NCBI GenBank assembly: GCA_937922795.1 | Contig: CALAJK010000086.1 | Span: forward strand, 1-62,244 | Length of the DNA stretch: 62,244 nucleotides | DNA from: an uncultured Anaerolineae bacterium | Lineage (GTDB): Bacteria; Chloroflexota; Anaerolineae; Aggregatilineales; Phototrophicaceae | Reading direction: 5' to 3' | In this document: positions 33,217-50,330 of the stretch, in pieces | Layout of the letters: every line of letters starts with the position of its first letter | How positions within the stretch are numbered: position 1 is the stretch's first letter | Translations under genes and position numbers: made by a program | The notes under the pieces: model-generated | Databases searched by the model: none | What the model was told of the DNA's origin: nothing | Seen by the model: only the letters and a program-made list of their open reading frames with translations

Positions 33217-33240
33217 GCTGTTCCCCCTTCTCAACGAAAA

Positions 33241-33261
33241 GCCGCGGTTGATACCCGCGGC
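33241..33261 (-). terminator. Factor-independent terminator after the exporter operon
   Basis: On the minus strand GCCGCGG, seven bases and CCGCGGC form a 7-bp GC stem immediately followed by TTTTCG. It lies 32 bases past the stop of the second ABC exporter gene and before the FtcD start, separating the two transcription units. Confidence 0.65.
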
Positions 33262-33292
33262 GGCTAATCGTACATCAAACGCTATATCCGCG

Positions 33293-35227
33293 TCAGTCGC
33301 TGCCGGCAGGGAGCGCCGATGGGGAAACGCGCCCATTAGCGGCGGGCATCTCCGCCTCGACCTCTCGGCGGAACTGGCTCATGTACAGATCGTAATACGC
33401 CCCGCGCCGCGCCAGCAGTTCGGCATGCGTTCCTCGCTCGACGATCTCGCCGTTCTGCAGCACCAACACCTGATCCGCATTACGAATGGTGCTCAGCCGG
33501 TGCGCGATGACGAAGCTGGTTCGCCCTTCCAGTAGTCTCTCAAATGCCTTCTGGATCAAGCGTTCTGTGCGCGTATCGACGCTGGAAGTTGCCTCGTCTA
33601 GGATCAAGATGCGCGGGTTCATCAGCGCCACGCGGGCGATGGCGATGAGCTGGCGCTGCCCCTGGCTTAGGCCGCTCCCGCGTTCTCCCAGCACCGTCTG
33701 GTAACCCTGTGGCAGCCGTTCGATGAACTGGTCAGCAGCGACCAACCGCGCGGCAGCCATCACTTCCTCATCGGTGGCCTCCAAGCGTCCATAACGGATA
33801 TTATTCACCACCGTATCCGAGAACAGGAAGGTATCCTGAAGTACGATCCCAATCTGACGGCGCAGGCTGGCCGCGGTGACATCCCGCACATCCATCCCGT
33901 CAATCCTGACGCTGCCGCGCGTCACATCGTAGAAGCGCGGGATCAGGTTGATGATCGTCGTCTTGCCGGCGCCGGTCGGGCCAACGATCGCCACTGTCTG
34001 ACCAGGCTGCGCTTCGAGGTGAATGCCGCGCAGCACAGGCTCCCCTGCTTCGTATTCCGCCCATACTTCATCGAACACGACGTGTCCTTGAATCGGCGGC
34101 ATTTCGCGCGCGTCGGGTTTGTCAACAATGGCCGGCTCGACCTCCATCAAGCCAAAGATGCGCTCGCCGCCAGCGATCGCGCTTTGCACGTTCGTCCACA
34201 GCACGGCAATCTGCTGAATCGGCTGGTTGAAACGCTGCACATACTGCAAAAACGTGAATACCGTGCCTAGCGAAATGACGATCGTCCCCAACAGCGGCTC
34301 ATCTCTCAAGACGGATAACCCGCCGACCACCACCACAACGCCCAGCGCCACATAACCCAACGCCTCCAGCACCGGGTTCAGGGCGCTGGTGAAGCTGGCA
34401 GCGCGAATGTTCGCGTCGCGATTGGCAGCATTGACCCGTCGAAAATGCTCGATGTTCTCGTCCTCGCGATTAAAAGCCTGCACCTCGCGCACACCGGCGA
34501 TGCTCTCTTGCAGATCAGCGTTGACGCTGCCCATTTCGCGCCGGCTGCGACGGAAAGCCTGGCGCGCCTGGCCGGAAAAATAGACCGTCGCCGCGATCAT
34601 CAGCGGCACAACCGATAGACTGAGCAGCGCATACGGCACATTGGTTTGCAGCATCCTCACGATGATCCAGACGATCAGCAAACCGCCGCTCAACACCTGC
34701 ACCAGCGCAAAACTCAACGCCTGCTGGATCGTCTCCGAATCGCTGGTGAAACGGCTCATGATATTGCCCGCTTCGTTTTCGGCGTAATAGCCCAGATGCA
34801 AGCGAGTGATATGCCGGAAAACATCCTTGCGAATCTGGCGCAGCGCGTTCTGGCTGGCCCACGTCATAGTGAAAAACATCAGGCCGCTGAAAACAGAGCC
34901 CGCTATGTACAGCGCCACCAGTAAGCCCACGATCCCTAACAAACCTGCCAGCTTGGCTTCTAGCGCCGCATCCGGCGTCGCCAGGGCATCGAACCAGCAG
35001 GTTGAACCGGGGCGCGGGAACAGATAACAGTCTACCGCCTGGCCTACCAGCTCTGGCCCGACCACCTGAGCCCAGGTAGTGATCACCATGAGCGCCGCCA
35101 CCAACACCAGCGCATACCAGCGCTGGCGGAAATAGCTCCAGAACCGCGCCAGGGTAGCGCCCACTCGCTTGGGCTTGATCGCGTCACGTTCTAGCAGACG
35201 TCGCGCGCCGTCTAAACCTCCCATCAT
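33293..35227 (-). CDS. Heterodimeric ABC exporter subunit with catalytic Walker B
   Basis: A 644-residue fused membrane/ATPase half-transporter (six helices, then the nucleotide-binding domain). Walker A GPTGAGKTTIINLIPRFYD lies near residue 420, the signature is LSQGQRQLIAIARV, and Walker B LILDEATSSVD carries the catalytic Glu545. The signature deviates from LSGGQ. The partner encoded upstream has the canonical signature but Asp in place of the catalytic Glu, so together they make one consensus and one degenerate ATP site, as in TM287/288 and BmrCD. Export substrate (drug, lipid or peptide) is unknown. The gene starts five bases after its partner. Confidence 0.9.
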   Translation of the reverse strand: MMGGLDGARRLLERDAIKPKRVGATLARFWSYFRQRWYALVLVAALMVITTWAQVVGPELVGQAVDCYLFPRPGSTCWFDALATPDAALEAKLAGLLGIVGLLVALYIAGSVFSGLMFFTMTWASQNALRQIRKDVFRHITRLHLGYYAENEAGNIMSRFTSDSETIQQALSFALVQVLSGGLLIVWIIVRMLQTNVPYALLSLSVVPLMIAATVYFSGQARQAFRRSRREMGSVNADLQESIAGVREVQAFNREDENIEHFRRVNAANRDANIRAASFTSALNPVLEALGYVALGVVVVVGGLSVLRDEPLLGTIVISLGTVFTFLQYVQRFNQPIQQIAVLWTNVQSAIAGGERIFGLMEVEPAIVDKPDAREMPPIQGHVVFDEVWAEYEAGEPVLRGIHLEAQPGQTVAIVGPTGAGKTTIINLIPRFYDVTRGSVRIDGMDVRDVTAASLRRQIGIVLQDTFLFSDTVVNNIRYGRLEATDEEVMAAARLVAADQFIERLPQGYQTVLGERGSGLSQGQRQLIAIARVALMNPRILILDEATSSVDTRTERLIQKAFERLLEGRTSFVIAHRLSTIRNADQVLVLQNGEIVERGTHAELLARRGAYYDLYMSQFRREVEAEMPAANGRVSPSALPAGSD

Positions 35228-35232
35228 GGCGG

Positions 35233-37188
35233 TTACTGAGCCTCCTGCACAGCGCCGGTGACCTCTACCGGCGCATCTTCGACGAGCTGTGAATGATAGA
35301 TTTCAGCGTAAATCGGGCTGCTCTCCATGAGTTCCTCATGCTTGCCGCTGGCTGCGATCTGTCCCTTGTCCAGCACCAGGATCTGATCAGCGTTGAGCAC
35401 CGTGCTGATGCGCTGCGCGATCACAAAACTGGTGCGCCCCCGCATCAAGTTGTCCAGCGCCTTTTGAATTTGATATTCCGTCACCAGGTCTACGCTGCTG
35501 GTCGAATCATCCAGGATCAACAGCCGTGGGTTCAGCAGCAGCGCCCTGGCGATGGCGATGCGCTGCTTCTGCCCACCGGAGAGCGTCGCGCCGCGCTCAC
35601 CTACGCGCGTATCGTAGCCGTCGGGAAAACTCATGATGAAATCGTGGGCGGCGGCGGCTTTGGCCGCGTTCACCACTTCCTCCAGCGAGGCTTCAGGCCG
35701 ACCAAAAGCGATGTTGTCGCGAATCGTGCCGCCGAACAGGTTGGTCTCTTGCAGCACGATCCCGATCTGAGATCGCAGGCTGTCGAGCGTCACGTCGCGC
35801 ACATCGTGGCCATCAATCAAGACTGCGCCCTCGCTGACATCGTAGAAACGCGGGATCAGGTTGATGATCGTCGTCTTGCCGCTGCCGGTCGCGCCCAACA
35901 GCGCGATCGTCTGCCCTGGCTCTGCTGTGAAGCTGACGTGTTTGAGCACCGGCTCGGCACTGCCGAAATACCTGAACGTGACATCCTTGAACTCGACTCG
36001 ACCCTGGATCGGCGGCAGCGGCCTCGCCCCCGGTTTATCGGTGACGTCGCTTTTAGCATCCAGGATTTCAAATATCCGGCTGGCCGAAGCGGAAGCCTGA
36101 GCCATAAGCGAGATGATGAAGCCCAACTGCCCTAACGGGAAGAAGACATAGATCAGGTATAGGCTGAATTTCTGATACTCGCCCAGATTAAGCGTGCCGT
36201 TCAGGATCTGCGCGCCGCCGAAGTACAGGATCGCCGCCTGCCCCAACTGCGCCACCAGAAAGATGACCGGGAATAGAAAAGCAAACGTCCGGCTGACCTT
36301 CAAGCTCTGTGCCAGAAGATCATCAGCCGCCCGGTCAAACCGCCGCTGCTCATAGGGCTCGCGCACGAAAGCCTTGACAACCTTGATCCCAGCCAGCGCC
36401 TCTTGAAGCACCGTGTTCATAGCCGAGATGCGCCGCTGCACTTCCACGAACAGCGGCTGGCTGAGCGCGCCAAAGACCACGAACAGCACCAACGCGATCG
36501 GCAGGGTGGGCAGTATCACCAGCGTCAGCCGCCAGTTAGTAGCCAGCAGAATGACCAGCGTCACCGACAGCAGAATGAATGCCTGCGCCGCCAGCACCAA
36601 GCCCTGAGCGATGAACAAGCGCACTTTTTCTACATCATCGGTGGCGCGGATCATCAACTGGCCGGTTTGGTTCTGATCATGATAGCTGAACGACATCCGC
36701 TGGATTTTCGCGAAGATCTCATTGCGAAAATCAAACGCCACACCCTGCGAGGTCTTCTCTGCCATGTACGCCTGAACGAACGAGAAAACGCCCCGCATGA
36801 CCGCAAAGGCCACGATAAAAAGCGCGGCGTTAATCAACAGCGCTTCAGCGTTAGCCTGATCAATGCGCAGTTGGTCAAGCGTCTTACCAACCTGCTGCGC
36901 CGCCAGACTCTGCGCCGCCGCTTGCAGCGCCGGGACGGGCGCTTGAATGCCGAGGATACCGTTGGCGATCGCCCCACTGGTGACGGCATCGATCATGTTC
37001 TGCACTAATTGGGGAACGGCGAGCTGCGCCAGCGTGGCGATGAGCAGCGCACCGTAAGCAACCAGCGTTGAACGGCGATGGCGGCCTAGATAGCGGATAG
37101 CGCGCACTAAGCCGCCATTTCGTGGAAGCTGTGAACCGCGTCCCGATCGGCTCCAGCGAGATGCTGCCTGTGCTCCCAAAGCTCTCAA
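35233..37188 (-). CDS. Heterodimeric ABC exporter subunit with degenerate Walker B
   Basis: A 651-residue half-transporter: six membrane helices with the exporter coupling regions, then a nucleotide-binding domain with Walker A GATGSGKTTIINLIPRFYD, canonical signature LSGGQKQRIAIARAL and Walker B LILDDSTSSVD, where Asp561 replaces the catalytic Glu. This is the usual degenerate half of a heterodimeric exporter. The frame opens with TTG at 37188; no in-frame ATG lies near the start and the ribosome site is weak, so the exact start is uncertain. It follows a MarR gene by 38 bases. Confidence 0.88.
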   Translation of the reverse strand: MRALGAQAASRWSRSGRGSQLPRNGGLVRAIRYLGRHRRSTLVAYGALLIATLAQLAVPQLVQNMIDAVTSGAIANGILGIQAPVPALQAAAQSLAAQQVGKTLDQLRIDQANAEALLINAALFIVAFAVMRGVFSFVQAYMAEKTSQGVAFDFRNEIFAKIQRMSFSYHDQNQTGQLMIRATDDVEKVRLFIAQGLVLAAQAFILLSVTLVILLATNWRLTLVILPTLPIALVLFVVFGALSQPLFVEVQRRISAMNTVLQEALAGIKVVKAFVREPYEQRRFDRAADDLLAQSLKVSRTFAFLFPVIFLVAQLGQAAILYFGGAQILNGTLNLGEYQKFSLYLIYVFFPLGQLGFIISLMAQASASASRIFEILDAKSDVTDKPGARPLPPIQGRVEFKDVTFRYFGSAEPVLKHVSFTAEPGQTIALLGATGSGKTTIINLIPRFYDVSEGAVLIDGHDVRDVTLDSLRSQIGIVLQETNLFGGTIRDNIAFGRPEASLEEVVNAAKAAAAHDFIMSFPDGYDTRVGERGATLSGGQKQRIAIARALLLNPRLLILDDSTSSVDLVTEYQIQKALDNLMRGRTSFVIAQRISTVLNADQILVLDKGQIAASGKHEELMESSPIYAEIYHSQLVEDAPVEVTGAVQEAQ

Positions 37189-37226: not shown

Positions 37227-37727
37227 TCAGTCTTCAGCCGTATCCGAAGGGTTCGCTGTCTGCCATTCAGCCTGCTTGGCCAGAACAGCGCGTTCTAAAG
37301 CCTCGACGACCATGCGTTGCTCGTGTAAGGGCAGCGCATTTAAGAACTCGACCATCAACGCACATCGTGAAGCCTGCGCTTCACGGATGGCGAGCGCGCC
37401 CTCCGCGCTCAAGTAGAGGCGCATTAAACGGGCATCTGCCGCGTCTGGTCGGCGCTCAATCAGGCCGGCAGCCTGCATATCGCGCACAGCGGTGGATATC
37501 GCCGCCGGCGTGACCCCCAACTTTTCAGCCAGATCTTTCTGGACGATGCCTGGCTCGTGATGGAGCAAGTGCAGCGCTTGAAGCTGATTGACAGGCAGCC
37601 GAGCGATGCGAGGATGCGGCTGATGGCGCAGTCGTGCCAGTTGAGCAAAGCGTTCAAACACGTGCATGAAGCGCTGCGCTAACTCATGCGCCTCATCCAA
37701 CTCGCCAGATTTCCGGGATGGGTTCAT
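37227..37727 (-). CDS. MarR-family transcriptional regulator
   Basis: A 166-residue winged-helix regulator. LPVNQLQALHLLHHEPGIVQKDLAEKLGVTPAAISTAVRDM is the MarR helix-turn-helix region (about residues 46-88), followed by the wing GLIERRPDAADARLMRLYLSAEG with the family-typical R.D.D/A.R. It probably represses itself and the downstream ABC exporter, as do many MarR proteins controlling efflux pumps. A perfect 14-bp palindrome lies 37 bases upstream of its start, between it and the divergent ATP-grasp cluster. Confidence 0.92.
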   Translation of the reverse strand: MNPSRKSGELDEAHELAQRFMHVFERFAQLARLRHQPHPRIARLPVNQLQALHLLHHEPGIVQKDLAEKLGVTPAAISTAVRDMQAAGLIERRPDAADARLMRLYLSAEGALAIREAQASRCALMVEFLNALPLHEQRMVVEALERAVLAKQAEWQTANPSDTAED

Positions 37728-37883: not shown

Positions 37884-39086
37884 ATGTCTGATCCGGTGAC
37901 TATTCTGGCGATAAGCAGCTACTTCAAAGGCGAAGCGTTCCTTCGGCAGTGCAAGCGCGAAGACTGTCGCGTTTTTCTGCTCACTGAAGAAAAGCTGGCG
38001 CACGAAAACTGGCCCCGCGAGAGCCTGGACGACCTATTTTTGATGCCCGATCTCTCGCGCCTGCAAGATGTCATCCACGCTGTCAGCTATCTGTTTCGCA
38101 GCACAGTCATTGACCGGATCATCCCACTCGATGAATACGACGTCGAAACGGCTGCTGCGCTGCGTGAACACCTGCGCCTGCCGGGCCCAGGGCAAACGGC
38201 GACCCGTTTCTTCCGCGACAAGTTAGCCATGCGTATGAAAGCGCAGGCGGCGGGCATTCTGGTCCCGGATTTCACGCCGGTTTTCAATTATGATCGCCTG
38301 CGCGAGTACCTGGGGCGTGTGCCCCCACCCTGGCTGCTCAAACCCCGGACTGAGGCGGGGGCGATGGGCATCAAACGCATCTACGAAGCGGAAGAACTGT
38401 GGCGTTGGTTAGATCAGCTTGGCGATCGTCAGTCGTATTTCCTGCTCGAACACTACGTGCCCGGTGACATTTTTCATGTCGACTCGATCATCTGGGATGG
38501 CGAAGTCCGTTTCGCCAGCGCCCAGAAGTATGGTCAACCACCGATGACGGTCGCCCACGAAGGCGGCATCTTCACGACCCGCACCCTACCCGCCGAAGCG
38601 CCTGACGCGCAGGCGCTGCTAGCGCTGAATGCGCAAGTTGTCGAGGCATTAGGGATTCAACGTGGGGTAGCCCACGCAGAATACATCAAAGCGCACGCAG
38701 ATGACCGCCTGTACTTTTTGGAGTGCGCTGCGCGAGTAGGAGGCGCGCACATTGCCGATCTGATCGAAGCCAGCCGGGGATTGAACCTCTGGGCTGAATG
38801 GGCGCGCCTGGAAACTGCCAGTGCGCGCGGCCAGACGTATCAACTGCCGGCGCTCAAAAAGCTGCATGGCGGCCTGTTAGTCTCGCTCGCCCGCCAGGAA
38901 CACCCGGACACCTCAGCCTATACCGATCCGGAAATTGTGTGGCGCCTGGACAAAAAACATCATGTAGGCTTGATCGTCGTCTCTGAAGACCATGATCGGG
39001 TGACCCACCTGCTGGAGGACTATACCCGGCGCTTCGTGACGGATTTCCTGGCCGTTCAGCCACCAAAAGACAGACCCACGAACTGA
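37884..39086 (+). CDS. ATP-grasp ligase (biotin-carboxylase-like), substrate unknown
   Basis: A 400-residue ATP-grasp enzyme starting at the ATG at 37884, six bases after AAGGGGG (a GTG lies one codon earlier). Residues 1-110 form a Rossmann-like pre-ATP-grasp domain. FRDKLAMRMKAQAAGI opens the ATP-grasp part, and PPWLLKPRTEAGAMGIKRI gives the ATP-binding lysine and glycine loop near 150-165. FLLEHYVPGDIFHVDSI and LYFLECAARVGGAHI provide the Mg2+-binding acidic residues. Such enzymes join a carboxylate, via acyl phosphate, to an amine. First gene of a six-gene plus-strand cluster. Confidence 0.82.
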   Translation: MSDPVTILAISSYFKGEAFLRQCKREDCRVFLLTEEKLAHENWPRESLDDLFLMPDLSRLQDVIHAVSYLFRSTVIDRIIPLDEYDVETAAALREHLRLPGPGQTATRFFRDKLAMRMKAQAAGILVPDFTPVFNYDRLREYLGRVPPPWLLKPRTEAGAMGIKRIYEAEELWRWLDQLGDRQSYFLLEHYVPGDIFHVDSIIWDGEVRFASAQKYGQPPMTVAHEGGIFTTRTLPAEAPDAQALLALNAQVVEALGIQRGVAHAEYIKAHADDRLYFLECAARVGGAHIADLIEASRGLNLWAEWARLETASARGQTYQLPALKKLHGGLLVSLARQEHPDTSAYTDPEIVWRLDKKHHVGLIVVSEDHDRVTHLLEDYTRRFVTDFLAVQPPKDRPTN

Positions 39087-39133
39087 GACGGATTCACGCC
39101 GTTTTCACCAGACATTCTCAATCCGAGCGTTCA

Positions 39134-40327
39134 ATGCCCGGTACGATAGATAGAGGCCGTCACATCGTCCACAGCACAGCGCCTATGCCCATGTTCACCT
39201 CGAACTATCCTTACTACCAACCCGGACATCCCTCGCTGTTGTCCACCTTGGAACGGACGGGGGCTTTACCGCAGTTCACAGGCCGCGGCGTCGTCATCGC
39301 GTTCATCGACTCCGGCTTTTACCCACACCGTGACCTAGAAGGCCGCATCTTGATGCATGTGGATGCGTCCACCAATCGAGTCATCGAGCAAGGCGCTGAC
39401 TTCCCGGCGAGCGATTTGAGCTGGCACGGGCAGATGACCAGCGTGATCGCCGCCGGCAGCGGCCGTACTTCCGGCGGGCGGTTTCGGGGCATTGCTTCGG
39501 AAGCTCAACTGGTGTTGATAAAAGTCAGCACACCGCAAGGCCAGATCAAAGAACGGGATATACTACGAGGGCTGCTGTGGCTGGCCGACACACACCGACG
39601 CCTCAACGTCCGCGTGGTCAATATCTCGGTAGGCGGTGATTTCGCCAGCAGTGATCCCGACCATCCACTGCATCGGACGATTCGCAAACTGGTTGCCGCC
39701 GGGGTGACCGTCGTCATCGCGGCCGGCAATCGTGGCGCCAATGAGCTTTTGCCGCCCGCCAGCGCCGCAGAGGCCGTAATCGTGGGCGGAGTTAACGACT
39801 ACAACTCAAACGATCCCAGCCTGTGGACACTCTATCATCACAACTATGGCCGCGCTTACGATGGCTCCTGCAAACCCGACCTTCTGGCGCCCGCGAACTG
39901 GATTGCCTCGCCCATCCTGCCGGGTTCATCCGTCGCGCGTGAAGTGCGCTGGCTGGCCGAGCTCCTCAAAACTTCCGACGAGTCCTATATCCAGCATGTG
40001 ATCCGCCAGGGCTATCGCGATCTCGGCATCCCCCGCGACGTCGCCTTCCACGCCGACGAGCATCTTTACGCCATGCTCCAGCGGCGCATTCACGCTCACA
40101 AAATCATCGACGCCTACCACCAACATGTGGATGGCACTTCCGTGGCCGCGCCCATTGTCACCGCAGTCATCGCTCAGATGCTCCAGGTCAACCCCAGTTT
40201 GACGCCATCTCAGATTCGCGCTATTCTGACGCGCACAGCCTGCCCGCTGCCTGATGCGCCTCCGGAGAAGCAAGGCGCGGGCGTGCTGAATGCAGCGCGA
40301 GCAGTGCAGGCCACGGGCGGGTCTTGA
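39134..40327 (+). CDS. Subtilisin-like (S8) serine protease without signal peptide
   Basis: A 397-residue S8 protease with a complete catalytic set: Asp59 in AFIDSGFYPH, His98 in SWHGQMTS, oxyanion Asn199 in AAGNRGAN, and Ser336 in DGTSVAAPIV. The stretch between Asn199 and Ser336 is 137 residues, roughly double that of subtilisin BPN', so an insert of about 70 residues (including LAELLKTSDESYIQHVIRQG) lies near the active site. There is no signal peptide or clear prodomain, so it appears intracellular. The start is uncertain; an in-frame ATG at 39185 is possible. It is the second gene of the ATP-grasp cluster. Confidence 0.88.
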   Translation: MPGTIDRGRHIVHSTAPMPMFTSNYPYYQPGHPSLLSTLERTGALPQFTGRGVVIAFIDSGFYPHRDLEGRILMHVDASTNRVIEQGADFPASDLSWHGQMTSVIAAGSGRTSGGRFRGIASEAQLVLIKVSTPQGQIKERDILRGLLWLADTHRRLNVRVVNISVGGDFASSDPDHPLHRTIRKLVAAGVTVVIAAGNRGANELLPPASAAEAVIVGGVNDYNSNDPSLWTLYHHNYGRAYDGSCKPDLLAPANWIASPILPGSSVAREVRWLAELLKTSDESYIQHVIRQGYRDLGIPRDVAFHADEHLYAMLQRRIHAHKIIDAYHQHVDGTSVAAPIVTAVIAQMLQVNPSLTPSQIRAILTRTACPLPDAPPEKQGAGVLNAARAVQATGGS

Positions 40328-40349
40328 GCGGCTGGATAAGCGGCAGATC

Positions 40350-41069
40350 ATGAATCGTGAATATCATCGGTGGTACAGCTCGTCCTTGGGTCGGGACATG
40401 GAACTGCTCGTTTTCGGCCATGCGGGCGCGCGCGTGCTAGTTTTTCCTACGTCAAAAGGCAAGTTTTACGAATGGGAAGACCGCGGCATGATCGGCTCGC
40501 TCTGGCAGCACCTGAGCCAGGGCTGGCTGCAGGTGTTTTGTGTGGACAGCGTGGATGCAGAAAGCTGGTACAACGGTTGGGCGCACCCAGGCGCGCGCGC
40601 TTACCGCCACGCCCAGTATGACGGTTACCTGTACAAAGAGGTGCTGCCGTTCACGCTCTCCAAGAACAGCAACCCTTTCTTGATCACGATGGGGGCCAGT
40701 TTTGGCGCCTACCACGCCATGAATTTTGGCCTCAAACATCCGGACAAGGTAGATCGTATTCTGGCCTTCAGCGGCTTGTTTGATATTCGCTGGTTTACTG
40801 ACGGTTACAGCGATGATTACGTATTCTTCAACAATCCTATGCAGTATATCGCTTATGAGAACGATCCGCAGCGTCTCAACTGGCTGCGGCATCTGGACAT
40901 CATCATCGCTACAGGACGCGATGACCGGCTCATCGATCAGGCGCGCAGCCTGTCCGGCCTACTGTGGCAGAAGGGCATCGGCAACGCGCTGCGCGAGTGG
41001 GATGGTTGGTCGCACGATTGGCCGTATTGGGAAAAAATGATGCACCTTTACATCGGCGGGCATGATTGA
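40350..41069 (+). CDS. Esterase-family alpha/beta hydrolase
   Basis: A 239-residue alpha/beta hydrolase of the esterase-D-like group, starting at the ATG at 40350, 22 bases after the protease stop. NREYHRWYSSSLGRDMELLVFG is a beta-rich start. The likely triad is Ser117 in GASFGAY, Asp191/192 in TGRDDRL and His222 in GWSHDW. An all-cytosolic sequence without a signal suggests intracellular ester hydrolysis or acyl transfer. Relatives of this size are often annotated COG4947 esterases and I recall them near ATP-grasp genes; I could not verify this here. Confidence 0.82.
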   Translation: MNREYHRWYSSSLGRDMELLVFGHAGARVLVFPTSKGKFYEWEDRGMIGSLWQHLSQGWLQVFCVDSVDAESWYNGWAHPGARAYRHAQYDGYLYKEVLPFTLSKNSNPFLITMGASFGAYHAMNFGLKHPDKVDRILAFSGLFDIRWFTDGYSDDYVFFNNPMQYIAYENDPQRLNWLRHLDIIIATGRDDRLIDQARSLSGLLWQKGIGNALREWDGWSHDWPYWEKMMHLYIGGHD

Positions 41070-41136
41070 CGCGCAGCGCTGGCTGTCTGCATACGGTAAG
41101 ATTTGAGCGGCGCATCACCTCTTGGAGACTACACTT

Positions 41137-42117
41137 ATGGTTATGGTTAACAGTGCATCCCGCGATCCTCTGCGAATTGGCCTGTTCGTTGGCCGGGAAT
41201 GGTCCTGGCCGCCAGCATTCATCGAAGAGGTCAATCGGCGTAACGCAGGCATCATCGCGGAATATGTGAAAATCGGCGGCACGCTCATGAATGAACCCTG
41301 TCCTTACCGTGTGATCGTTGACCGCATTTCACATGAAGTGCCGTACTACCGTCTGTATCTCAAGAACGCGGTGCTCCAAGGAGTGAAGGTGATCAATGAT
41401 CCCTTCATGTGGACGGCCGATGACAAGTTCTTCGGCGCGTCGCTGGCAACGAAACTCGGTGTGGCCTCTCCGCGCACCGTCGCGCTGCCTAATAAGGACT
41501 ACGTTCCTGGCATCGTCCACAACGAAAGCCTGCGCAATCTCAAGTACCCGCTGGACTGGAACGCGCTGGTCGAGATGGTCGGCGGCATGCCGTGTGTGCT
41601 CAAGGATGCGCATGGCGGCGGGTGGAAAGAAGTCTATGTCGTCCATTCAGTCGCTGAGCTCATTTGGCGCTATAACCAGAGCGGCCTGTTGACGATGATT
41701 CTGCAGGAGTACATTCAGTGGGATGATTACTGTCGCTGCATGTGCTTGGGGCAGGACGAGATTTACGTGATGAAGTACGACCCCAACACGCGCCAGTATC
41801 ATGACCAGCACAACTTCGAGCCCGCGCTGCTCGAACGCATCGTGTCCGACGCTCGCAAGCTGAACCAGGCGCTAGGCTACGATATGAACACAGTTGAGTT
41901 TGCCATCAAGGATGGCGTGCCCTACGCGATTGATTTCATGAACCCTGCGCCAGATATGGATGTGAACTCATTGGGACGCAAACATTTCGATTGGATGGTG
42001 ACTCACATGGCCGATCTGACCATTCGGTTGGCGCAGAGCGGCGACCGCACGCTGGATCGCTACGTATGGGGGAAACAACTACAGCAGCCGCCCCCCCAAC
42101 CTTCAAACGCTGGCTGA
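41137..42117 (+). CDS. RimK-like ATP-grasp ligase, substrate unknown
   Basis: A 326-residue ATP-grasp protein from the ATG at 41137, with GGAG nine bases ahead. After an N-terminal domain that reads like a glutathione-synthetase/RimK pre-domain (GVKVINDPFMWTADDKF), the ATP-binding part shows MPCVLKDAHGGGWKEVYVV near 155-175, LQEYIQWDDYCRCMCLG, and VEFAIKDGVPYAIDFMNPAPDMD, where DFMNPAPD takes the place of the usual E-x-N Mg2+ motif. Expected chemistry is ATP-driven amide or thioester formation. Only six bases separate it from the next ATP-grasp gene, so the two probably act together. Confidence 0.82.
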   Translation: MVMVNSASRDPLRIGLFVGREWSWPPAFIEEVNRRNAGIIAEYVKIGGTLMNEPCPYRVIVDRISHEVPYYRLYLKNAVLQGVKVINDPFMWTADDKFFGASLATKLGVASPRTVALPNKDYVPGIVHNESLRNLKYPLDWNALVEMVGGMPCVLKDAHGGGWKEVYVVHSVAELIWRYNQSGLLTMILQEYIQWDDYCRCMCLGQDEIYVMKYDPNTRQYHDQHNFEPALLERIVSDARKLNQALGYDMNTVEFAIKDGVPYAIDFMNPAPDMDVNSLGRKHFDWMVTHMADLTIRLAQSGDRTLDRYVWGKQLQQPPPQPSNAG

Positions 42118-42123
42118 TCGTCT

Positions 42124-43470
42124 ATGCTTGCCCAGGCGATTGATACCTATCACAGCCTGCTCGACGATGAACTGGCGCAGGCCGCCAGCGCCGAACTGTT
42201 CGCCCGTCTGCGCCCGTTAAGCCTCTACTTTGGCGATCGGCCGATCTGCACCGTGCTGCGCCCCTACTTCTACTTCAACGACCAGTGGAACTACATGCAG
42301 CGCGAGACGGAAGTCTTGCTCAGCGCTTTCGCCGTCGCCCATGCAGCTTGCCTAGCTGACGCCAAGCTGCGCGAGCAGCTCGCGCTCGAAGCCTACGAGG
42401 AAGCGCTGTTCAGCCTCGACATCGGCGCGGCTGTGCCCTGGACAAGCTCCCGTCTAGACTCGTTCTTCATCGCCGATGAGCGGCGGCTGCAGTTCGTCGA
42501 GTACAACGCCGAGACGCCGGCTGGCATGGGTTACGAAGATATTCTGGCCGAGCTGTTCATGCAGCTCGAACCGATGAAGCGCTTCCTCAAGCACTATGCG
42601 GTGCAGAGCATGCCGATGCGCGGCAAGCTGTTGGCGGCGCTCATGCGCGGCTACCGCGACTGGGGCGGGCATGGCATTCCGCAGATCGCCATCGTCGATT
42701 GGGGGTACGTCCCCACCCTCAACGAACACGCGATCATTCGCGGCTTCTTCGAACAGCATGGCGTTCGGACGATTCTGGCCGATCCACGCATGCTTGAGTA
42801 CCGTGATGGCCACCTGTGGGCTGAGGATTTTCGCATTGATCTGATCTACAAACGGGTGCTGTGCAGCGAACTCATCCATCGCATGGGACAGGATAATCCG
42901 ATCGTGCAGGCAGTGCGCGACCGGGCCGTGTTCATGACCAACTCCTTCAGCGCCAAACTTCTGGCAAAGAAAGCCAGCCTGGCCTTCTTAAGCGACGAGG
43001 CCAACGCCCATCTGTTCACCCCGGAACAGCGCGCCGCCATTGACGCCCATATCCCCTGGACGCGCCGCGTGACGGATCGCAAGACGACTTATCAGGGACG
43101 CTTGGTTGACTTGCTTGAATTCATCGCCGACCACCGCGAACGTCTGGTGCTGAAACCGAATGATGAGTACGGCGGTTCAGGCGTGGTGCTGGGATGGGAA
43201 GTCAGCGCTGAGACGTGGAACCAGGCCATACGCCAGGCGCTCAGCACGCCGCACGTCGTCCAGGAGCGTGTTCACCCCATCATCCGCGACTTTCCCGCGG
43301 TCATTGATGGACGTCTTGACATCAGTCCGCGCTATGTAGATGCCAACCCCTATGTTTTCTACGGCCATACCGTCTACGGCTGCCTGACGCGGCTGTCATC
43401 GGTCTCCCTGCTGAATGTGACGGCGGGCGGCGGCTCGGTGGTGCCAACTTTTCTGCTGCAGAAACGCTGA
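42124..43470 (+). CDS. Circularly permuted / glutathionylspermidine-synthase-like ATP-grasp enzyme
   Basis: A 448-residue protein with motifs in the order seen in glutathionylspermidine synthase and other circularly permuted ATP-grasp proteins: an acidic Mg2+ motif RRLQFVEYNAETPAGMGYED near residues 121-140 comes first, and the ATP-binding lysine with glycine loop, ERLVLKPNDEYGGSGVVLGW near 340-359, comes last, followed by VVQERV. The C-terminus ends with an unusual glycine-rich LLNVTAGGGSVVP. It is likely to form an amide bond between a carboxylate and an amine; neither substrate is evident. It sits between the RimK-like ligase and the lyase gene. Confidence 0.78.
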   Translation: MLAQAIDTYHSLLDDELAQAASAELFARLRPLSLYFGDRPICTVLRPYFYFNDQWNYMQRETEVLLSAFAVAHAACLADAKLREQLALEAYEEALFSLDIGAAVPWTSSRLDSFFIADERRLQFVEYNAETPAGMGYEDILAELFMQLEPMKRFLKHYAVQSMPMRGKLLAALMRGYRDWGGHGIPQIAIVDWGYVPTLNEHAIIRGFFEQHGVRTILADPRMLEYRDGHLWAEDFRIDLIYKRVLCSELIHRMGQDNPIVQAVRDRAVFMTNSFSAKLLAKKASLAFLSDEANAHLFTPEQRAAIDAHIPWTRRVTDRKTTYQGRLVDLLEFIADHRERLVLKPNDEYGGSGVVLGWEVSAETWNQAIRQALSTPHVVQERVHPIIRDFPAVIDGRLDISPRYVDANPYVFYGHTVYGCLTRLSSVSLLNVTAGGGSVVPTFLLQKR

Positions 43471-43480
43471 ACGTCGCGCT

Positions 43481-44920
43481 ATGGAGCTGACCTTGAGCGA
43501 CGCCTTCACCCATGACACTTTCCTCAGCCCGTTCACCTGGCGTTACGGTTCTGACGCCATGCGCGCCATCTGGTCGGAAACCTACAAGCGGCGTTTATGG
43601 CGACGCATTTGGGTGGCGCTCGCCGAAGCGCAGTGCGCAGCGGGCATCGTGACGGCGGAACAAGCTGCTGACTTGCGGGCTCATCAAGATCACATTGACC
43701 TGAAGCGATCATCAGAAATCGAGGCGGTCATCCATCATGATTTGATGGCCGAAATCCGGTGTTTTGCCGAGCAGTGTACAGTTGGCGGCGGCATTTTACA
43801 TCTGGGCGCCACCAGCGCCGATATCGAAGACAACGCGGATGCGCTGCGTCTGCGGGAAAGCCTGAAACTCATCCTCACCGGCGTACGCGGCTTGTTGTAC
43901 GCGCTGGCCGAGCAGATTGACCGTCACGCGGAAACTGTCTGCATGGCGTTCACTCACCTGCAGCCGGCCGAGCCGACCACTATCGGCTACCGGCTGGCGG
44001 GTTACGCCCAGGATTTACTGGCCGATTACGACACCCTGGCTCAAACACATGATCAGATCCGCGGCAAGGGACTTAAAGGGGCGGTTGGCACACGGGCGGC
44101 CTTTGCTGAACTGCTGGCCGGCAGCGCGATGACGCCGGAAGCGCTGGAAACCCGCGTGATGGCCGCGCTCAACTTGCCAGCTTACGCGATCACCGGGCAG
44201 ACTTACCCGCGCCGGCAGGATTGGCAGGTCTTGAACGCATTGGCCGGACTGGGGCTGTCGGTCTACAAGCTGGCGTTTGACCTGCGTCTGCTGCAGTCGC
44301 CCTCCATCGGCGAATGGGCCGAACCCTTCGGCGCATCTCAGGTGGGGTCGTCAGCCATGCCCTTCAAGCAGAATCCCATCCACGCCGAAAATCTGGACAG
44401 CCTGGCGCGTTTTCTGGCCGCCCTGCCCCGCGTCGCCTGGGACAATGCCGCTCACAGCCTGCTGGAGCGTACCCTCGACGATTCGGCCAACCGCCGCCTG
44501 ATTTTGCCGGAGGCTTTCTTGACGGCCGATGAACTGCTGCGGCGAGCCGGGCGTATCGTGAAAGGCCTGCAAATTAACCTGGACAGCATTCAACGCAATC
44601 TAGCGCGCTACGGCGTTTTCGCCGCCACCGAACGCCTGCTGATGGCGGGCGTCAAGCGCGGCGCGGACCGCCAGGCATGGCATGAGATCATTCGCGAACA
44701 CAGCCTAATCGCTTGGGACGCCTTGCGTCAGGGGCTGCCCAACCCGCTGGCTGACCGCCTGGCCGCCGACATACGTATCACCCAGGTGATCGAGCCGGCG
44801 GTCGTGCGCGATCTGCTGCGCGCCGAGTCGCACATCGGCGATGCGCCGCAGCGGGCGCTCGCCCAAGCACAGCGTATCCGCGCTGCTTTATCGGAAAACA
44901 GCAAGGATCTCGATCATTGA
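43481..44920 (+). CDS. purB: Adenylosuccinate-lyase-family enzyme
   Basis: A 479-residue member of the fumarase/aspartase superfamily. Conserved elements are HLGATSADIEDNADALRLRE, FTHLQPAEPTTIGYR with the catalytic histidine near 158, and the mobile signature loop GSSAMPFKQNPIHAEN with its catalytic serine near 290. The GSSAMP.K.NP form and sequence suit PurB, which makes AMP and opens SAICAR with fumarate release. It starts ten bases after the permuted ATP-grasp gene. Either it is the housekeeping PurB placed in this cluster by chance, or a paralogue that removes fumarate from a pathway intermediate. The 3' end overlaps the convergent Tat gene by seven bases. Confidence 0.82.
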   Translation: MELTLSDAFTHDTFLSPFTWRYGSDAMRAIWSETYKRRLWRRIWVALAEAQCAAGIVTAEQAADLRAHQDHIDLKRSSEIEAVIHHDLMAEIRCFAEQCTVGGGILHLGATSADIEDNADALRLRESLKLILTGVRGLLYALAEQIDRHAETVCMAFTHLQPAEPTTIGYRLAGYAQDLLADYDTLAQTHDQIRGKGLKGAVGTRAAFAELLAGSAMTPEALETRVMAALNLPAYAITGQTYPRRQDWQVLNALAGLGLSVYKLAFDLRLLQSPSIGEWAEPFGASQVGSSAMPFKQNPIHAENLDSLARFLAALPRVAWDNAAHSLLERTLDDSANRRLILPEAFLTADELLRRAGRIVKGLQINLDSIQRNLARYGVFAATERLLMAGVKRGADRQAWHEIIREHSLIAWDALRQGLPNPLADRLAADIRITQVIEPAVVRDLLRAESHIGDAPQRALAQAQRIRAALSENSKDLDH

Positions 44921-45345
44921 TCGACGCGCTCGCCGCCGCTCCAAGTGCCCAGATCGGGCGCTGTGGGGCCGGTAGCTGAGGGCGTTGGCGCAGCGGCGCG
45001 ACCATTGCTCTCCGACACACTGGCTGCCCGCTTCACCTGTGTGAGCTGCTTGCTCGTCTCATCCAGCGCTTCTTGAACCGGTTTGGTGACCGGGGATAGG
45101 GCTCTGTTCACCTGCTGGTTGATGCTTGAGCGCGTCGGCGGCGTCTTGGGAAGATCGACGTCCATGCCGGCTTCTCGAAACTCTCGCTCAATATAGGACA
45201 TACTTTCTGCCCACAACGCGCGCAGTTTCGCGGTGTACTGCCCCAGGACATACGCCCATCGAATCATCCGCTTGGGGCCAGCCACCACCAGCATGATGAT
45301 GAGGATGGCAATCAGCTCAGCGCCGCCAATACCCAGGATTTCCAT
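44914..45345 (-). CDS. TatA/TatB-like twin-arginine translocase component
   Basis: A 143-residue protein from the ATG at 45345, preceded by AGAGGTG. It begins MEILGIGGAELIAILIIMLVVAGPKRMIRW: a single N-terminal membrane helix, then the G-P-K-R hinge and an amphipathic helix (YVLGQYTAKLRALW), the TatA/B layout. A flexible proline/serine-rich tail of about 80 residues, with KQLTQVKRAASV, follows. The length and tail lean towards TatB rather than short TatA. No tatC is nearby. It is tail-to-tail with the lyase gene. Confidence 0.8.
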   Translation of the reverse strand: MEILGIGGAELIAILIIMLVVAGPKRMIRWAYVLGQYTAKLRALWAESMSYIEREFREAGMDVDLPKTPPTRSSINQQVNRALSPVTKPVQEALDETSKQLTQVKRAASVSESNGRAAAPTPSATGPTAPDLGTWSGGERVDQ

Positions 45346-45528
45346 GACTGCCGCACCTCTGCTTAGCTTCTGACGCTTCGGATTGTACCCTACTGCATCC
45401 AGAGCATACAATCAGCAATCGCGTTCGTGCAGACAAACGCGAATCAACTCAGGCGGTCGTTTATCCCACAACCGCCCGAGCTCATGCCCCGCTTATCCCA
45501 AGATGACAGAACGCCGCTTCAGCCTTTT

Positions 45529-47187
45529 TCAGGCCTGACCGCCGCGCACCTGACGCCGGATCTGTTTGAGACGCTTCATGACGTTATTCGCGCCTCGTCC
45601 AAAATAGTCGTAAAGCAGCTTGTAGTCGGCATAGAGCTGATCATAAATCGCGGCATTTTCGGCGATCGGGCCGACCGTCTCATCCTTCAACCGTCCCATA
45701 TGCTCAGCCGCCTGCTGAATGTTGGGGTAAACCCCGGCAGCAACGGCGGCGTGCATGGCCGATCCTAACGCCGGCGACTGGGCTGAGCCGGCGAACTTCA
45801 GCGGTTTGCGCGTGACGTCTGCGTAGATCTGCACCAACAGCTTGTTGCGCTCCGGTAGGCCGCCAGCCAGCACCAGCTCATTCACCGGGATGCCGCGCTC
45901 CTCGAACGAGTCGATGATGATGCGCGTGCCGAACGCGGTCGCCTCAATCAACGCCCGGTAGATATCAGGCGCTTTAGTGGCCAGCGTCGCGCCGATCAAC
46001 AAACCTGTCAGATCAGCATCTACCAATACCGACCGATTGCCATTCCACCAGTCCAAGGCCAGCAGCCCCGACTCGCCGGGCTTCTGTTTGGCGGCTTCCT
46101 GTTCGAGATATTGGTGCAGATTCAAACCGGCTGCTTTGGCCGCTTCGTGGTACTCCGGCGGGACTGCATTATCCACAAACCACGCAAAGATATCGCCTAC
46201 ACCGCTCTGTCCGGCCTCGTACCCATAGTAGCCGGGGATGATCCCGTCGCGCACCACGCCGCACATGCCTTCGACTGTTTGCAGCCCTTCGCCTACGATC
46301 ATATGACAAGTAGACGTGCCCATGATCATCACCATCTGCCCTGGCCCCGTCACTTTCACCGCCGGCACGGTGACGTGGGCATCCACGTTGGCCACCGCCA
46401 CCGCCGTTCCGGGAAGCAGACCGGTCCAGGCTGCCGCCTGCTCAGTCAGGCCGCCCGCTCTACCGCCCAGCGGGGCGAACTCTCGGCTCATTTTTGTGTC
46501 GACGACATCGGCAAAGCGCGGGTCTAGCGCCGCGAAGAACTCTCGCGACGGATAAACCCCATCTTGAACGATGGCCTTGTAACCTGCCGTACAGGTATTG
46601 CGCGTTTCATTGCCTGTCAACTGCCAGATAACCCAGTCAGCCGCCTCGATGAGGCGATCAGCCGCTGCATAAACCTCCGGCGCTTCCTGCAAAATTTGCA
46701 GCGCTTTGCTGAAAAACCATTCCGAGGAAATCTTGCCGCCGTAGCGGTCAAGCCAGCTCTCGCCCATCCGCCGCGCCGTCTCATTGATCTGGTCAGCTTG
46801 GGGCTGTGAGGCATGGTGCTTCCATAACTTCACCCAGGCATGGGGGTTGTCGCGCCACTCCGGCAGCACGCACAGCGGCGTCCCGTCACGCTTAGTGGGC
46901 ATCATCGTGCAAGCCGTGAAATCTATGCCGATGCCAACTACTTCATCTGGCCGAACACCGCTCTCTTTCAACACGGCAGGGATCGTCTGTTTGAAAACTT
47001 CGATGTAGTCCATCGGGTCTTGCAGCGCCCAGTCGGGCGGCAGCGGACGGTCGCTGCCGGGCAAATGCTCATCAATCACGCCGTTGCTGTACGGGTGAAC
47101 AGCCGTGGCCACTTCGCGGCCATCGCGCACATCCACCAGCACTGCGCGCCCTGACTCTGTGCCGAAATCAATGCCGAGTGTGTACAT
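45529..47187 (-). CDS. araB: Ribulokinase
   Basis: A 552-residue FGGY-family sugar kinase. [43 protein letters not shown] and [18 protein letters not shown] are typical of AraB-type ribulokinases, and the C-terminal [22 protein letters not shown] holds the nucleotide-binding region. It phosphorylates L-ribulose to L-ribulose 5-phosphate in arabinose breakdown. GAGGGAAAA precedes the ATG. Last gene of the minus-strand sugar locus, 76 bases after the alcohol dehydrogenase gene. No araA or araD gene is in the window. Confidence 0.93.
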
Positions 47188-47263
47188 AAGCTTTTTCCCT
47201 CATGCTCCAAAAGAGAACCTGCTCTGATCCACAAAATGGCCCAGGCCTTATACACTTAACCAT

Positions 47264-48316
47264 CTAACCGGTAGGTGTGTTCGGCAGCACAACAGCCCGG
47301 ATGACTTCATCTGAGTAGTTGGCGGCAGTCTCAAAAGCGTCTCGCGTCTGCTCTAGGCTGAATGTATGCGAAGCCAGAACATCCAAATCTACCCGCCTAT
47401 CCTGCGCCAGCGCGATAGCTGCCGGATACGTGTGTTTCATCCGCCGCGACGACAGGATCGCCAGCTCTTTTCGCCGGGCTGCCGAAGCGCGGAAAGTGAT
47501 GAAATCTTCTACGGGAATGCCCACAATGACCACCCGACCGCCATGGCGCGCCATCTCAACACATTGGTTAGCTGTCGCGTCTGCCCAGGCTGCCTCGATC
47601 GCTACATCAACTCCGCGCCGATTGGTCAGCCGCATGACTTCTTGCACCAGGTCGACTTCGTCGGCTTTGAGCGCCACGTCGGCGCCGTAATCAGCCGCCA
47701 GCGCCAGCCGCCAGGCATAACGATCCGCTGCGAAAATGCGGCGCGCCCCGGCCAACCGCGCCAGCCGCACCAGCAGCAGCCCGATCGCCCCGCAGCCAAC
47801 GACAGCTACATCCTCGCCTACCTGAATTTGCGCCAAGCGGATGGCGTGCAGCGCGACGCCAAGCGGCTCCAGCATGGCCGCGCTCACATCGGAGATGGTG
47901 TCTGGCACAGGAACGCATGTCTGAGCCGGATACAGCATCCGCTGGCGCAACGCACCGTGGTATGGATAAAGACCCATGAACATCAACCGCTCACACAGAT
48001 GAGGATCGCCCGCCTGGCAGCGCTCGCAGACGCCGCAGGCGATGGCTGGGTCGATCGCTACGCGCTGCCCCACGCGCAGTTGACGCTCATCAACGCCGGG
48101 ACCCACCGCCAGGACGACGCCTGCCGCCTCATGACCTAGCGTGAGCGGTTGTTCAGGCGCTATTCCGCCGACGCTGCCGAAGAGATAGGTGTGCAAGTCG
48201 CTGCCGCAAATCCCCACAGCGGTGACTTCCAACAACACGCTGCCCGGTCCGGGGTCTACATCGGGGATCGTCTCGACGCGAATATCACGAACGCCGTAGA
48301 GGAAAGCGGATCGCAT
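47264..48316 (-). CDS. Zinc-dependent alcohol/polyol dehydrogenase (MDR family)
   Basis: A 350-residue medium-chain dehydrogenase. The catalytic zinc site shows GICGSDLHTY (Cys37) and GHEAAGVV; the structural zinc lobe is CGVCERCQAGDPHLC near 94-108; VGCGAIGLLLVRLARLAGARRI is the NAD(P)-binding Rossmann motif. Similar proteins include sorbitol, threonine and L-arabinitol dehydrogenases. Between a ribulokinase and a xylulokinase gene it plausibly interconverts a polyol and a ketose, or handles another sugar of the locus. The substrate is inferred from context. Confidence 0.88.
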   Translation of the reverse strand: MRSAFLYGVRDIRVETIPDVDPGPGSVLLEVTAVGICGSDLHTYLFGSVGGIAPEQPLTLGHEAAGVVLAVGPGVDERQLRVGQRVAIDPAIACGVCERCQAGDPHLCERLMFMGLYPYHGALRQRMLYPAQTCVPVPDTISDVSAAMLEPLGVALHAIRLAQIQVGEDVAVVGCGAIGLLLVRLARLAGARRIFAADRYAWRLALAADYGADVALKADEVDLVQEVMRLTNRRGVDVAIEAAWADATANQCVEMARHGGRVVIVGIPVEDFITFRASAARRKELAILSSRRMKHTYPAAIALAQDRRVDLDVLASHTFSLEQTRDAFETAANYSDEVIRAVVLPNTPTG

Positions 48317-48340
48317 AGGGTGTTATATACCTTGTACCAG

Positions 48341-48649
48341 TCAAACCCAGGCCGTCGCATCGGGGAAGATGGGCGTATAGCGCACCCCGCTGCGCGGCTC
48401 CGCCATCATATCTGCTACGGCATCCCGCCAGCGCAGATAATGTGCGGTCTCTTTGTGACGCGCTGGCGCCTCCGCATCCCGGTACACCTCAATCAGCATG
48501 AAGCGCGTTGGATCGTCCGCTTGCTGAATGAAATCGAACCGGGCAATGCCGGGTTCCTGCACGCTGTTCTTGACGTTATCCAGGGTCGCTGCGATGAAAG
48601 CGTCCACCGCCTCCGGCTTAACGTGAACAGACACCAGAACGAGATGCAT
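48341..48649 (-). CDS. Antibiotic-biosynthesis-monooxygenase-fold (ABM) protein
   Basis: A 102-residue ferredoxin-like-fold protein from the ATG at 48649. [51 protein letters not shown] and [14 protein letters not shown] are the standard ABM pattern also found in LsrG. In sugar loci such proteins often act as isomerases or mutarotases, or have unknown roles. It lies between xylB (13 bases away) and the dehydrogenase gene (24 bases away), so it belongs to their transcript. Confidence 0.88.
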
Positions 48650-48662
48650 ACGCCGATTCCTC

Positions 48663-50159: not shown

Positions 50160-50330
50160 GGCCACAACCTCGTGGTCAAAAGGTATAATTGGCGTCTGAG
50201 TTTAACCAGCGCTGCCGTTGTATAACAGTGCCATTTTCCCTCTTGCGGGTTGCTGATCGTCACCTCTGGCTAGCGCCTGGTTCCAGCAAACGGCGAGAGG
50301 TGCGCGCCACGCTTCGATAAAACTGTCGCA

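What the first reader, a model, noticed from the sequence alone, without database searches (positions are those of the whole stretch)
37884..44920. Six-gene cluster of three ATP-grasp ligases, an intracellular subtilisin, an esterase and a PurB-family lyase
Seen: six plus-strand genes with gaps of 6 to 67 bases, of which three carry ATP-grasp folds of three kinds (biotin-carboxylase-like, RimK-like, circularly permuted/glutathionylspermidine-synthase-like). Known: ATP-grasp enzymes make amide or peptide bonds, and clusters of several ATP-grasp genes with hydrolases often build ribosome-independent peptides or amide conjugates. Inferred: this is a pathway for an undescribed small peptide or amide, with the protease and esterase for maturation, turnover or self-protection. 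No precursor-peptide gene is visible in the gaps, which argues against a graspetide RiPP.
Basis: partly seen in the sequence, partly recalled or inferred. Interest (0 to 1): 0.8.

Follow-up and report, generated by a model that had tools for sequence, protein, structure and literature searches.

The report
Conserved amide-ligase gene cluster in Chloroflexota
Five neighbouring genes, kept together in related Chloroflexota bacteria, look like an assembly line that joins amino acids or amines without the ribosome into an unidentified small molecule; the sixth gene looks like an ordinary purine-synthesis gene that happens to sit beside them.

Summary
In detail: six plus-strand genes with 6-67 base gaps. 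Five (A-E, 37884-43470) form a conserved unit. The sixth (F, PurB) does not belong: it passes the purB cut-off, is the only purB found in the genome, and occurs in relatives with and without the others. A is an L-amino-acid-ligase-like ATP-grasp, B an S8 subtilase without a visible signal peptide, C a PF00756 serine hydrolase, D a RimK/LysX-like ATP-grasp; E has the glutathione-synthetase/glutathionylspermidine-synthetase/YgiC fold. Catalytic residues are kept in all five.

Across 61 genomes (own plus 60 relatives) D occurs with E in 32 of 33, with C in 32 of 33 and with A in 26 of 33; 27 of the 28 genomes without D also lack A. Across 400 genomes of the phylum D co-occurs with a GCS2 (glutamate-cysteine-ligase-like) carboxylate-amine ligase (78 of 98 D genomes; 78 of 82 GCS2 genomes), adjacent or far away. 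The window's genome has no GCS2.

Best reading: a ribosome-independent pathway, organised like glutathione/glutathionylspermidine synthesis, making an unknown peptide or amide; in the window's lineage an L-amino-acid ligase may have taken over the first step, although some relatives show neither ligase. Product unknown.

The parts
37884..39086 (+). Gene A: L-amino-acid-ligase-like ATP-grasp enzyme (400 aa from the ATG)
   Evidence: Profile of 21 rows against the PDB: 4wd3 L-amino acid ligase E=1.1e-27, 3vot 3.2e-15, BacD 1.4e-12. K113, K153, E189, E266, E280, R284 identical in 30 of 30 rows. In 26 of 33 D-positive and 1 of 28 D-negative genomes. Its place and strand vary between lineages while it stays at the locus.
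39134..40327 (+). Gene B: subtilisin-family (S8) protease; no hydrophobic N-terminal stretch by eye, so probably intracellular
   Evidence: PF00082 E=2.9e-38. D59, H98, S336 identical in 44 of 44 rows. In 35 of 51 loci with good flanks but 3 of 20 loci from the wider phylum.
40350..41069 (+). Gene C: alpha/beta serine hydrolase, PF00756 esterase family
   Evidence: PF00756 E=1.6e-9. S116, D191, H221 (numbering of A3) invariant in 39 of 39 rows. In 32 of 33 D-positive and 0 of 28 D-negative genomes, also when far from D.
41137..42117 (+). Gene D: RimK/LysX-like ATP-grasp ligase
42124..43470 (+). Gene E: circularly permuted ATP-grasp ligase with the fold of glutathione synthetase / glutathionylspermidine synthetase / YgiC
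43481..44920 (+). Gene F: adenylosuccinate lyase PurB; neighbour, judged not part of the system
   Evidence: TIGR00928 376.6 bits against cut-off 326.2. Only hit over the cut-off in the genome; the two weaker hits are argH (beside an argG-like ORF) and fumC by eye. Found in 17 of 28 genomes without D.

Best explanation
Genes A-E encode a ribosome-independent pathway that makes an unknown small peptide or amide with at least three ATP-dependent amide-bond formers. By family, each should activate a carboxylate as an acyl phosphate and couple it to an amine. In the wider phylum the core is a GCS2-type ligase (gamma-glutamyl-type first bond), the RimK/LysX-like ligase D (adds an amino acid, possibly glutamate-like) and the glutathione-synthetase/glutathionylspermidine-synthetase-fold ligase E (closes the peptide with an amino acid or a polyamine), with hydrolase C removing, transferring or recycling an acyl or amide group. 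In the window's lineage GCS2 is missing and the L-amino-acid ligase A may supply the first bond; subtilase B may do turnover or trimming. Shown: the genes, synteny, co-occurrence, folds, conserved catalytic residues and the absence of GCS2. Inferred: that all five serve one product, the order of steps, the substrates, and the roles of B and C. PurB is a bystander. Estimates: one shared small-molecule pathway for A, C, D, E about 0.7; a gamma-glutamyl/glutathione-like product phylum-wide about 0.35; polyamine as E's amine donor about 0.3.
For: Co-occurrence in 61 genomes (own plus 60): D with E 32/33, with C 32/33, with A 26/33; among 28 D-negative genomes E, C and A occur in 1, 0 and 1. C is kept with D even when unlinked: 386 kb away in G042, on other contigs in G048, G053, G058. 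In 51 genome-collection loci with good flanks: E 50, C 46, B 35, A 24, GCS2 11, F 3. A stays at the locus through rearrangement: upstream +, upstream -, or downstream. GCS2 at 523 bits or more: in 78 of 98 D genomes, and 78 of 82 such GCS2 genomes have D; within 4 kb in 52 of 78. Of 20 wider-phylum loci: E 16, GCS2 14, C 13. Folds; catalytic residues. E's R-x-D and E-x-N have the spacing of R139/D141/E163/N165 of Cp1B, whose alanine changes abolish or weaken activity (PMC12568646, passages). Outside the phylum an A-like ATP-grasp sits directly before a C homologue in Peptoclostridium and Sinorhizobium RAC02, and directly after an E homologue in a Streptomyces; an E homologue lies one gene from a glutamate-cysteine-ligase-family gene in Selenomonas.
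Against: No substrate is known for any of the five. A is missing from 7 of 33 D-positive genomes; G014 is a contig-edge case and G036 is fragmented, but G031 (98% complete, 20 contigs) has neither A nor any GCS2, and G042 (5 contigs) lacks A. At 20 of 51 well-flanked loci neither A nor GCS2 is present, so a first-ligase swap does not explain every case. B and A are lineage-limited. RimK/LysX relatives modify proteins (recalled), so D could too. Within the 61 genomes GCS2 shows no association with D (7/33 against 11/28, p=0.16). Fisher tests treat genomes as independent, which they are not.
Confidence: 0.6

Rival explanations
1. Protein modification: D, like RimK or LysX, ligates amino acids to a protein or carrier protein; E adds a further group; the S8 protease B and hydrolase C remove it.
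For: D's nearest folds are RimK and LysX/ArgX, which act on ribosomal protein S6 or LysW (recalled; RimK-RpsF and ArgX-LysW complexes are in the titles). B is a protease without a visible signal, in 35 of 51 loci.
Against: E and GCS2 belong to small-molecule ligase families, and A is nearest to L-amino-acid ligases that make dipeptides. I saw no carrier or substrate-protein gene recurring in the locus maps, but ORFs under 90 codons were not mapped there. B is in only 3 of 20 wider-phylum loci.
Confidence: 0.2
2. A low-molecular-weight thiol or trypanothione-like cofactor: a gamma-glutamyl-cysteine-like core extended by D and E, with C as a thioesterase or amidase for adducts.
For: GCS2, a glutathione-synthetase-fold enzyme and a PF00756 hydrolase recur together. 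Bacillithiol's BshC is absent from 61 of 61 genomes. A Peptidase C26 gene, a family that holds gamma-glutamyl hydrolases, lies in 6 of the 80 loci.
Against: The four GCS2 proteins of the system that I tested are PRK13515 'carboxylate-amine ligase', below the cut-offs of the glutamate-cysteine ligase models; cysteine specificity is unshown. The window lacks GCS2. BshC is also absent from the 28 D-negative genomes, so its absence is weak evidence.
Confidence: 0.2
3. Two or more unrelated small operons lie side by side, for example D-E on its own, with A, B and C chance neighbours.
For: A, B and C are missing from some loci; C is unlinked in several genomes.
Against: Unlinked C and GCS2 still co-occur with D; A is nearly confined to D-positive genomes (1 of 28 D-negative).
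Confidence: 0.1
4. All six genes including the PurB lyase form one pathway, with F as a specialised lyase (as in nitrosuccinate chemistry).
For: F is within 300 bases of E in 6 of the 30 genomes (own included) that hold both; NCBIfam holds a model, PRK02186 (890 positions), whose first part A matches and whose later part F matches, both far below its cut-off.
Against: F passes the purB cut-off and is the only purB found; it is in 17 of 28 genomes without D and mostly elsewhere in genomes with D.
Confidence: 0.03

Closest known systems
Glutathione / glutathionylspermidine synthesis (GCS2 or GshA, glutathione synthetase, glutathionylspermidine synthetase; E. coli YgiC/YjfC peptide-spermidine ligases)
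   Different: An additional RimK/LysX-like ligase, an L-amino-acid ligase, an esterase-family hydrolase and a subtilase; no amidase domain on E; no GCS2 in the window's genome; substrates unknown.
L-amino-acid ligase pathways (4wd3, BL00235 and BacD type dipeptides; dapdiamide DdaF)
   Same: A is closest to these by profile with ATP-grasp residues kept.
   Different: Here A sits with two other ATP-grasp ligases of other kinds; no NRPS or warhead genes seen at the locus.
E-64 pathway Cp1B-type ATP-grasp ligase (PMC12568646, passages)
   Different: Fungal, works with an ANL-family enzyme and an oxygenase, activates trans-epoxysuccinate.
Amidoligase clusters with ATP-grasp, GCS2-like and hydrolase genes (Iyer et al. 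2009, content recalled; seen only as a reference in PMC4431377)
   Same: Same general kind: several amide ligases with hydrolases, predicted to make novel peptides.
   Different: Whether this exact C-D-E-GCS2 set is described there could not be checked (not held).

Membership tests
Adenylosuccinate lyase PurB (gene F) | Score above the TIGR00928 equivalog cut-off | tested here: met
   376.6 bits against 326.2
Adenylosuccinate lyase PurB (gene F) | Only enzyme of its kind in the genome, hence housekeeping | tested here: met
   The other two hits in G000 are under the cut-off and read as argH and fumC; the genome is 85% complete
L-amino-acid ligase (gene A) | Sequence relation to solved L-amino-acid ligases and ATP-grasp catalytic residues | tested here: met
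   4wd3 E=1.1e-27; residues identical in 30 of 30 rows
L-amino-acid ligase (gene A) | ATP-dependent dipeptide formation | not testable with these tools
   Needs enzyme assay
Glutathione/glutathionylspermidine synthetase fold (gene E) | Whole-length permuted ATP-grasp fold | tested here: met
Glutathione/glutathionylspermidine synthetase fold (gene E) | Acyl-phosphate-forming residues R-x-D and E-x-N | tested here: met
   R110, D112, E126, N128 in 71 of 71 rows; pattern from Cp1B passages. Matched by motif spacing, not by a residue-level superposition
Bifunctional glutathionylspermidine synthetase/amidase | N-terminal amidase domain | tested here: not met
   E begins at the ligase part; its model aligns to residues 211-618 of 2io8
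Glutathione pathway | A gamma-glutamyl ligase (GCS2/PF04107) in the same genome | tested here: not met
   None in G000 (85% complete) nor in any of the 25 D-positive genomes of family f1; present in 78 of 98 D-positive genomes of the phylum sample. Other gamma-glutamyl ligase families were not sought
RimK/LysX family ligase (gene D) | Fold and metal/ATP residues | tested here: met
RimK/LysX family ligase (gene D) | Score above the rimK_fam model cut-off | tested here: not met
   24.9 bits against 143.4
Graspetide RiPP | Linked precursor-peptide gene | tested here: inconclusive
   Gaps of 6-67 bases leave no room; a precursor elsewhere was not sought
S-formylglutathione hydrolase (gene C) | Match to an S-formylglutathione hydrolase model in NCBIfam | tested here: inconclusive
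   The only NCBIfam match was PRK07581, weak; PF00756 is met

The most novel reading that the evidence does not exclude
Chloroflexota make a phylum-characteristic, glutathione/trypanothione-like conjugate (a gamma-glutamyl or L-amino-acid dipeptide extended by D and capped by E, perhaps with a polyamine) that serves as a general small-molecule cofactor; the window's lineage has swapped the ancestral GCS2 first step for an L-amino-acid ligase.
Probability: 0.17. Interest if true: 0.85.

Novelty: new variant of a known kind. Interest (0 to 1): 0.55.

Why it matters
If right, a large and mostly uncultured phylum carries a multi-ligase pathway whose product is unknown. It would give a concrete target (the product of D and E) for asking which small conjugate these bacteria use, and a possible case in which the first ligase of an amide pathway was exchanged. 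It would also supply three stand-alone ATP-grasp ligases for enzymatic amide synthesis.

Tried and rejected
PurB as a pathway member: rejected. Order-level GCS2 genes as the first ligase of D-positive relatives: G042, G043, G048, G049, G053, G054 and G059 have an unlinked GCS2. In a tree of 40 rows these seven form one clade with GCS2 of two D-less genomes (100/100, branch 0.44); the nearest rows to that clade are five D-linked GCS2 of other families, at weak support (81/54), and the root is only the midpoint, so whether this clade is a paralogue or an offshoot of the linked gene is open. Its scores on the GCS2 profile (456-531 bits) straddle the line used. Bacillithiol: BshC 0 of 61, which says nothing specific about D. 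D on plasmids: no match. Rfam: no match in the window. Promoter and terminator scan: no more than in shuffles (3 against 2.8; 7 against 6.3). Literature: searches listed nothing that I recognised as this cluster; they search one open-licence library and I looked at listings and, for four papers, at passages only (PMC4431377, PMC12568646, PMC10948618, PMC6282198; the last never names Chloroflexus). Iyer et al. 2009 is not held, so absence from print is not claimed. Three fetched loci (L118, L132, L134) hold a D paralogue with none of the partners; the D family is wider than the system. In one search the three positions given for C were off by one and are not used; C's triad rests. A first reading undercounted E and C because overlapping ORFs hid hits; one search has the full counts.
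Full report
Observation. Six plus-strand ORFs lie at 37884-44920 with gaps of 47, 22, 67, 6 and 10 bases. Pfam and NCBIfam place them as ATP-grasp (A), Peptidase_S8 (B), Esterase PF00756 (C), no Pfam family with a weak rimK_fam hit (D), CP_ATPgrasp_2 (E) and purB (F). The window lies in a 3.6-Mb assembly, 85% complete; that it is a Chloroflexota is inferred from the labels of the nearest loci (mostly Anaerolineae and Chloroflexi MAGs), and 'Chloroflexota' for the 400 genomes below rests on the same inference.

The sixth gene is not part of it. F scores 376.6 bits on the purB equivalog model (cut-off 326.2). In the whole genome it is the only hit over the cut-off; the two weaker hits read as argH, directly beside an argG-like ORF, and fumC (gene names by eye). 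In 61 genomes (the window's own and 60 relatives) an F relative is found in 48, including 17 of the 28 without D, and it lies within 300 bases of E in only 6 of the 30 genomes that hold both, the window's own among the 6. This is most simply a housekeeping PurB beside the cluster in a few close relatives.

The other five are a unit. Over the same 61 genomes D is in 33, E in 33, C in 32 and A in 27. D and E share 32 genomes, and in all 32 they lie within 1 kb. D and C share 32; C is within 2.5 kb of D in 24 of these, but in others it is far away (386 kb in G042; other contigs in G048, G053, G058) and still present. A is in 26 of 33 D-positive and 1 of 28 D-negative genomes. The one E hit without D (G029) and the one A hit without D (G017) are partial matches. 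G014 lacks A and C most likely because its contig ends beside D: L004 stops 62 bases past it, as does L033 on a 35,245-base contig. Fisher p-values (D-E 4.8e-15, D-C 1.5e-16, D-A 1.5e-9, D-F 0.0035) are not corrected for shared ancestry.

Gene order. A scan of one genome per species gave 249 stretches that encode a D relative, of which the best 80 were kept. D was recovered as an ORF in 77 of these; 51 have at least about 4 kb on both sides. In the 51, E is present in 50, C in 46, B in 35, A in 24, GCS2 in 11, C26 in 4 and F in 3; 20 of the 51 have neither A nor GCS2. A moves: upstream on the same strand in the window's kin, upstream on the opposite strand in L046, L047, L049, L050, L052, and downstream of E or GCS2 in L073, L087, L094, L099, L102, L105, L109, L111. 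A gene that stays at a locus while changing place and strand is good evidence of a functional tie. Six of the 80 loci carry a Peptidase C26 gene and none of those six has A; one of them, L061, matches Pfam's Peptidase_C26 and, below cut-off, a gamma-glutamyl-GABA hydrolase model. These loci and the G genomes overlap, so the two counts are not independent.

A fourth ligase in the wider phylum. D is hit in 98 of 400 genomes, remote paralogues included. Of 20 loci that I chose from these hits, 16 have E, 14 a GCS2-family gene, 13 C, 3 B and 2 A; the GCS2 and A of L133 are of remote types. Four system GCS2 proteins (L107, L119, L124, L129) pass the cut-offs of PRK13515 'carboxylate-amine ligase' and of the YbdK-like subfamily, but not those of the glutamate-cysteine ligase models. 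Searching the 400 genomes for this GCS2 gave 82 genomes at 523 bits or more; 78 of them are D-positive, and 78 of the 98 D-positive genomes have it, within 4 kb of D in 52. Of the 20 D-positive genomes without it, 7 have only a remote D (at most 314 bits) and in one (G299) the GCS2 hit is split over contigs at lower scores. In family f32 17 of 22 D-positive genomes have it, none within 4 kb; two of these unlinked genes (L156, L157) fall beside a linked one in the tree (100/97). The window's genome has no GCS2 at all, nor has any of the 25 D-positive genomes of its family. So the window's set appears derived: GCS2 absent, L-amino-acid ligase A present. This is not a clean exchange: loci with both exist (L094, L102, L105, L109, L111, L119), G031 has neither, and seven D-positive genomes of sister families hold an unlinked GCS2 whose relation to the linked gene the tree does not settle.

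Other phyla. On plasmids, 17 records hold a C homologue (26-47% identity) and 13 an E homologue. I looked at four of the former: in Peptoclostridium and Sinorhizobium RAC02 an ATP-grasp ORF matching A's profile (80 and 96 bits) lies directly upstream of C; in Thiodictyon and one Rhizobium none does. Of three E records, a Streptomyces has an A-like ORF (43 bits) directly after E, a Selenomonas has a glutamate-cysteine-ligase-family gene one gene (a MATE efflux transporter) away, and Sinorhizobium fredii shows neither. The theme is therefore not confined to Chloroflexota.

Mechanism. Shown: the set, its co-occurrence, its folds, its intact active sites. Inferred: that it builds one small product by successive ATP-dependent amide bonds. 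The most economical order is a first bond by GCS2 (or A in this lineage), extension by D, and capping by E with an amino acid or amine; C would hydrolyse or transfer an acyl or amide group of the product or an intermediate; B's part is least certain. No gap can hold a usual precursor-peptide gene, so a graspetide is unlikely but not excluded.

Standing. The kind (multi-ligase amide clusters) is known in general; Iyer et al. 2009 is recalled for it and was not readable here. I did not recognise the specific C-D-E-GCS2 set, its spread or the A-bearing form in the listings, which cover only open-licence papers. I rate it a new variant of a known kind.

Noticed in passing
window 33293-37188 (-) and 37227-37727 (-): Two ABC exporter half-genes and a MarR-type regulator are transcribed away from gene A; the same ABC-MarR-A order recurs in 7 mapped relatives (L032, L035-L039, L044), so regulator or exporter could serve the cluster in this genus.
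   Followed up: partly
window 44914-45411 (-): A short protein with a weak TatB match (32.4 bits, cut-off 56.5) faces gene F; similar ORFs recur in 5 loci (cluster 39).
   Followed up: partly
window 45529-50165 (-): Ribulokinase and xylulokinase (both over their cut-offs) flank a zinc alcohol dehydrogenase-like gene and a small LsrG-like one (both under cut-offs): perhaps a pentose-use cluster.
   Followed up: partly
window 31705-33336 (-): One ORF joins glutamate formimidoyltransferase (over cut-off) to a methenyltetrahydrofolate cyclohydrolase-like part (under cut-off).
   Followed up: no
L118, L132, L134: A divergent D paralogue (290-318 bits) stands alone without C, E or GCS2; the genome behind L117 and L118 has both forms.
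   Followed up: no
L133 2477-9894: Three A-like ATP-grasp genes, a GCS2 gene of the PRK13517 type and a remote D lie together, with a C-like ORF at the edge: possibly a different, larger amide pathway.
   Followed up: no
L061, L062, L064, L065, L070: A Peptidase C26-type gene sits directly upstream of B in loci that lack A; L151 appears to be the same contig as L065.
   Followed up: partly
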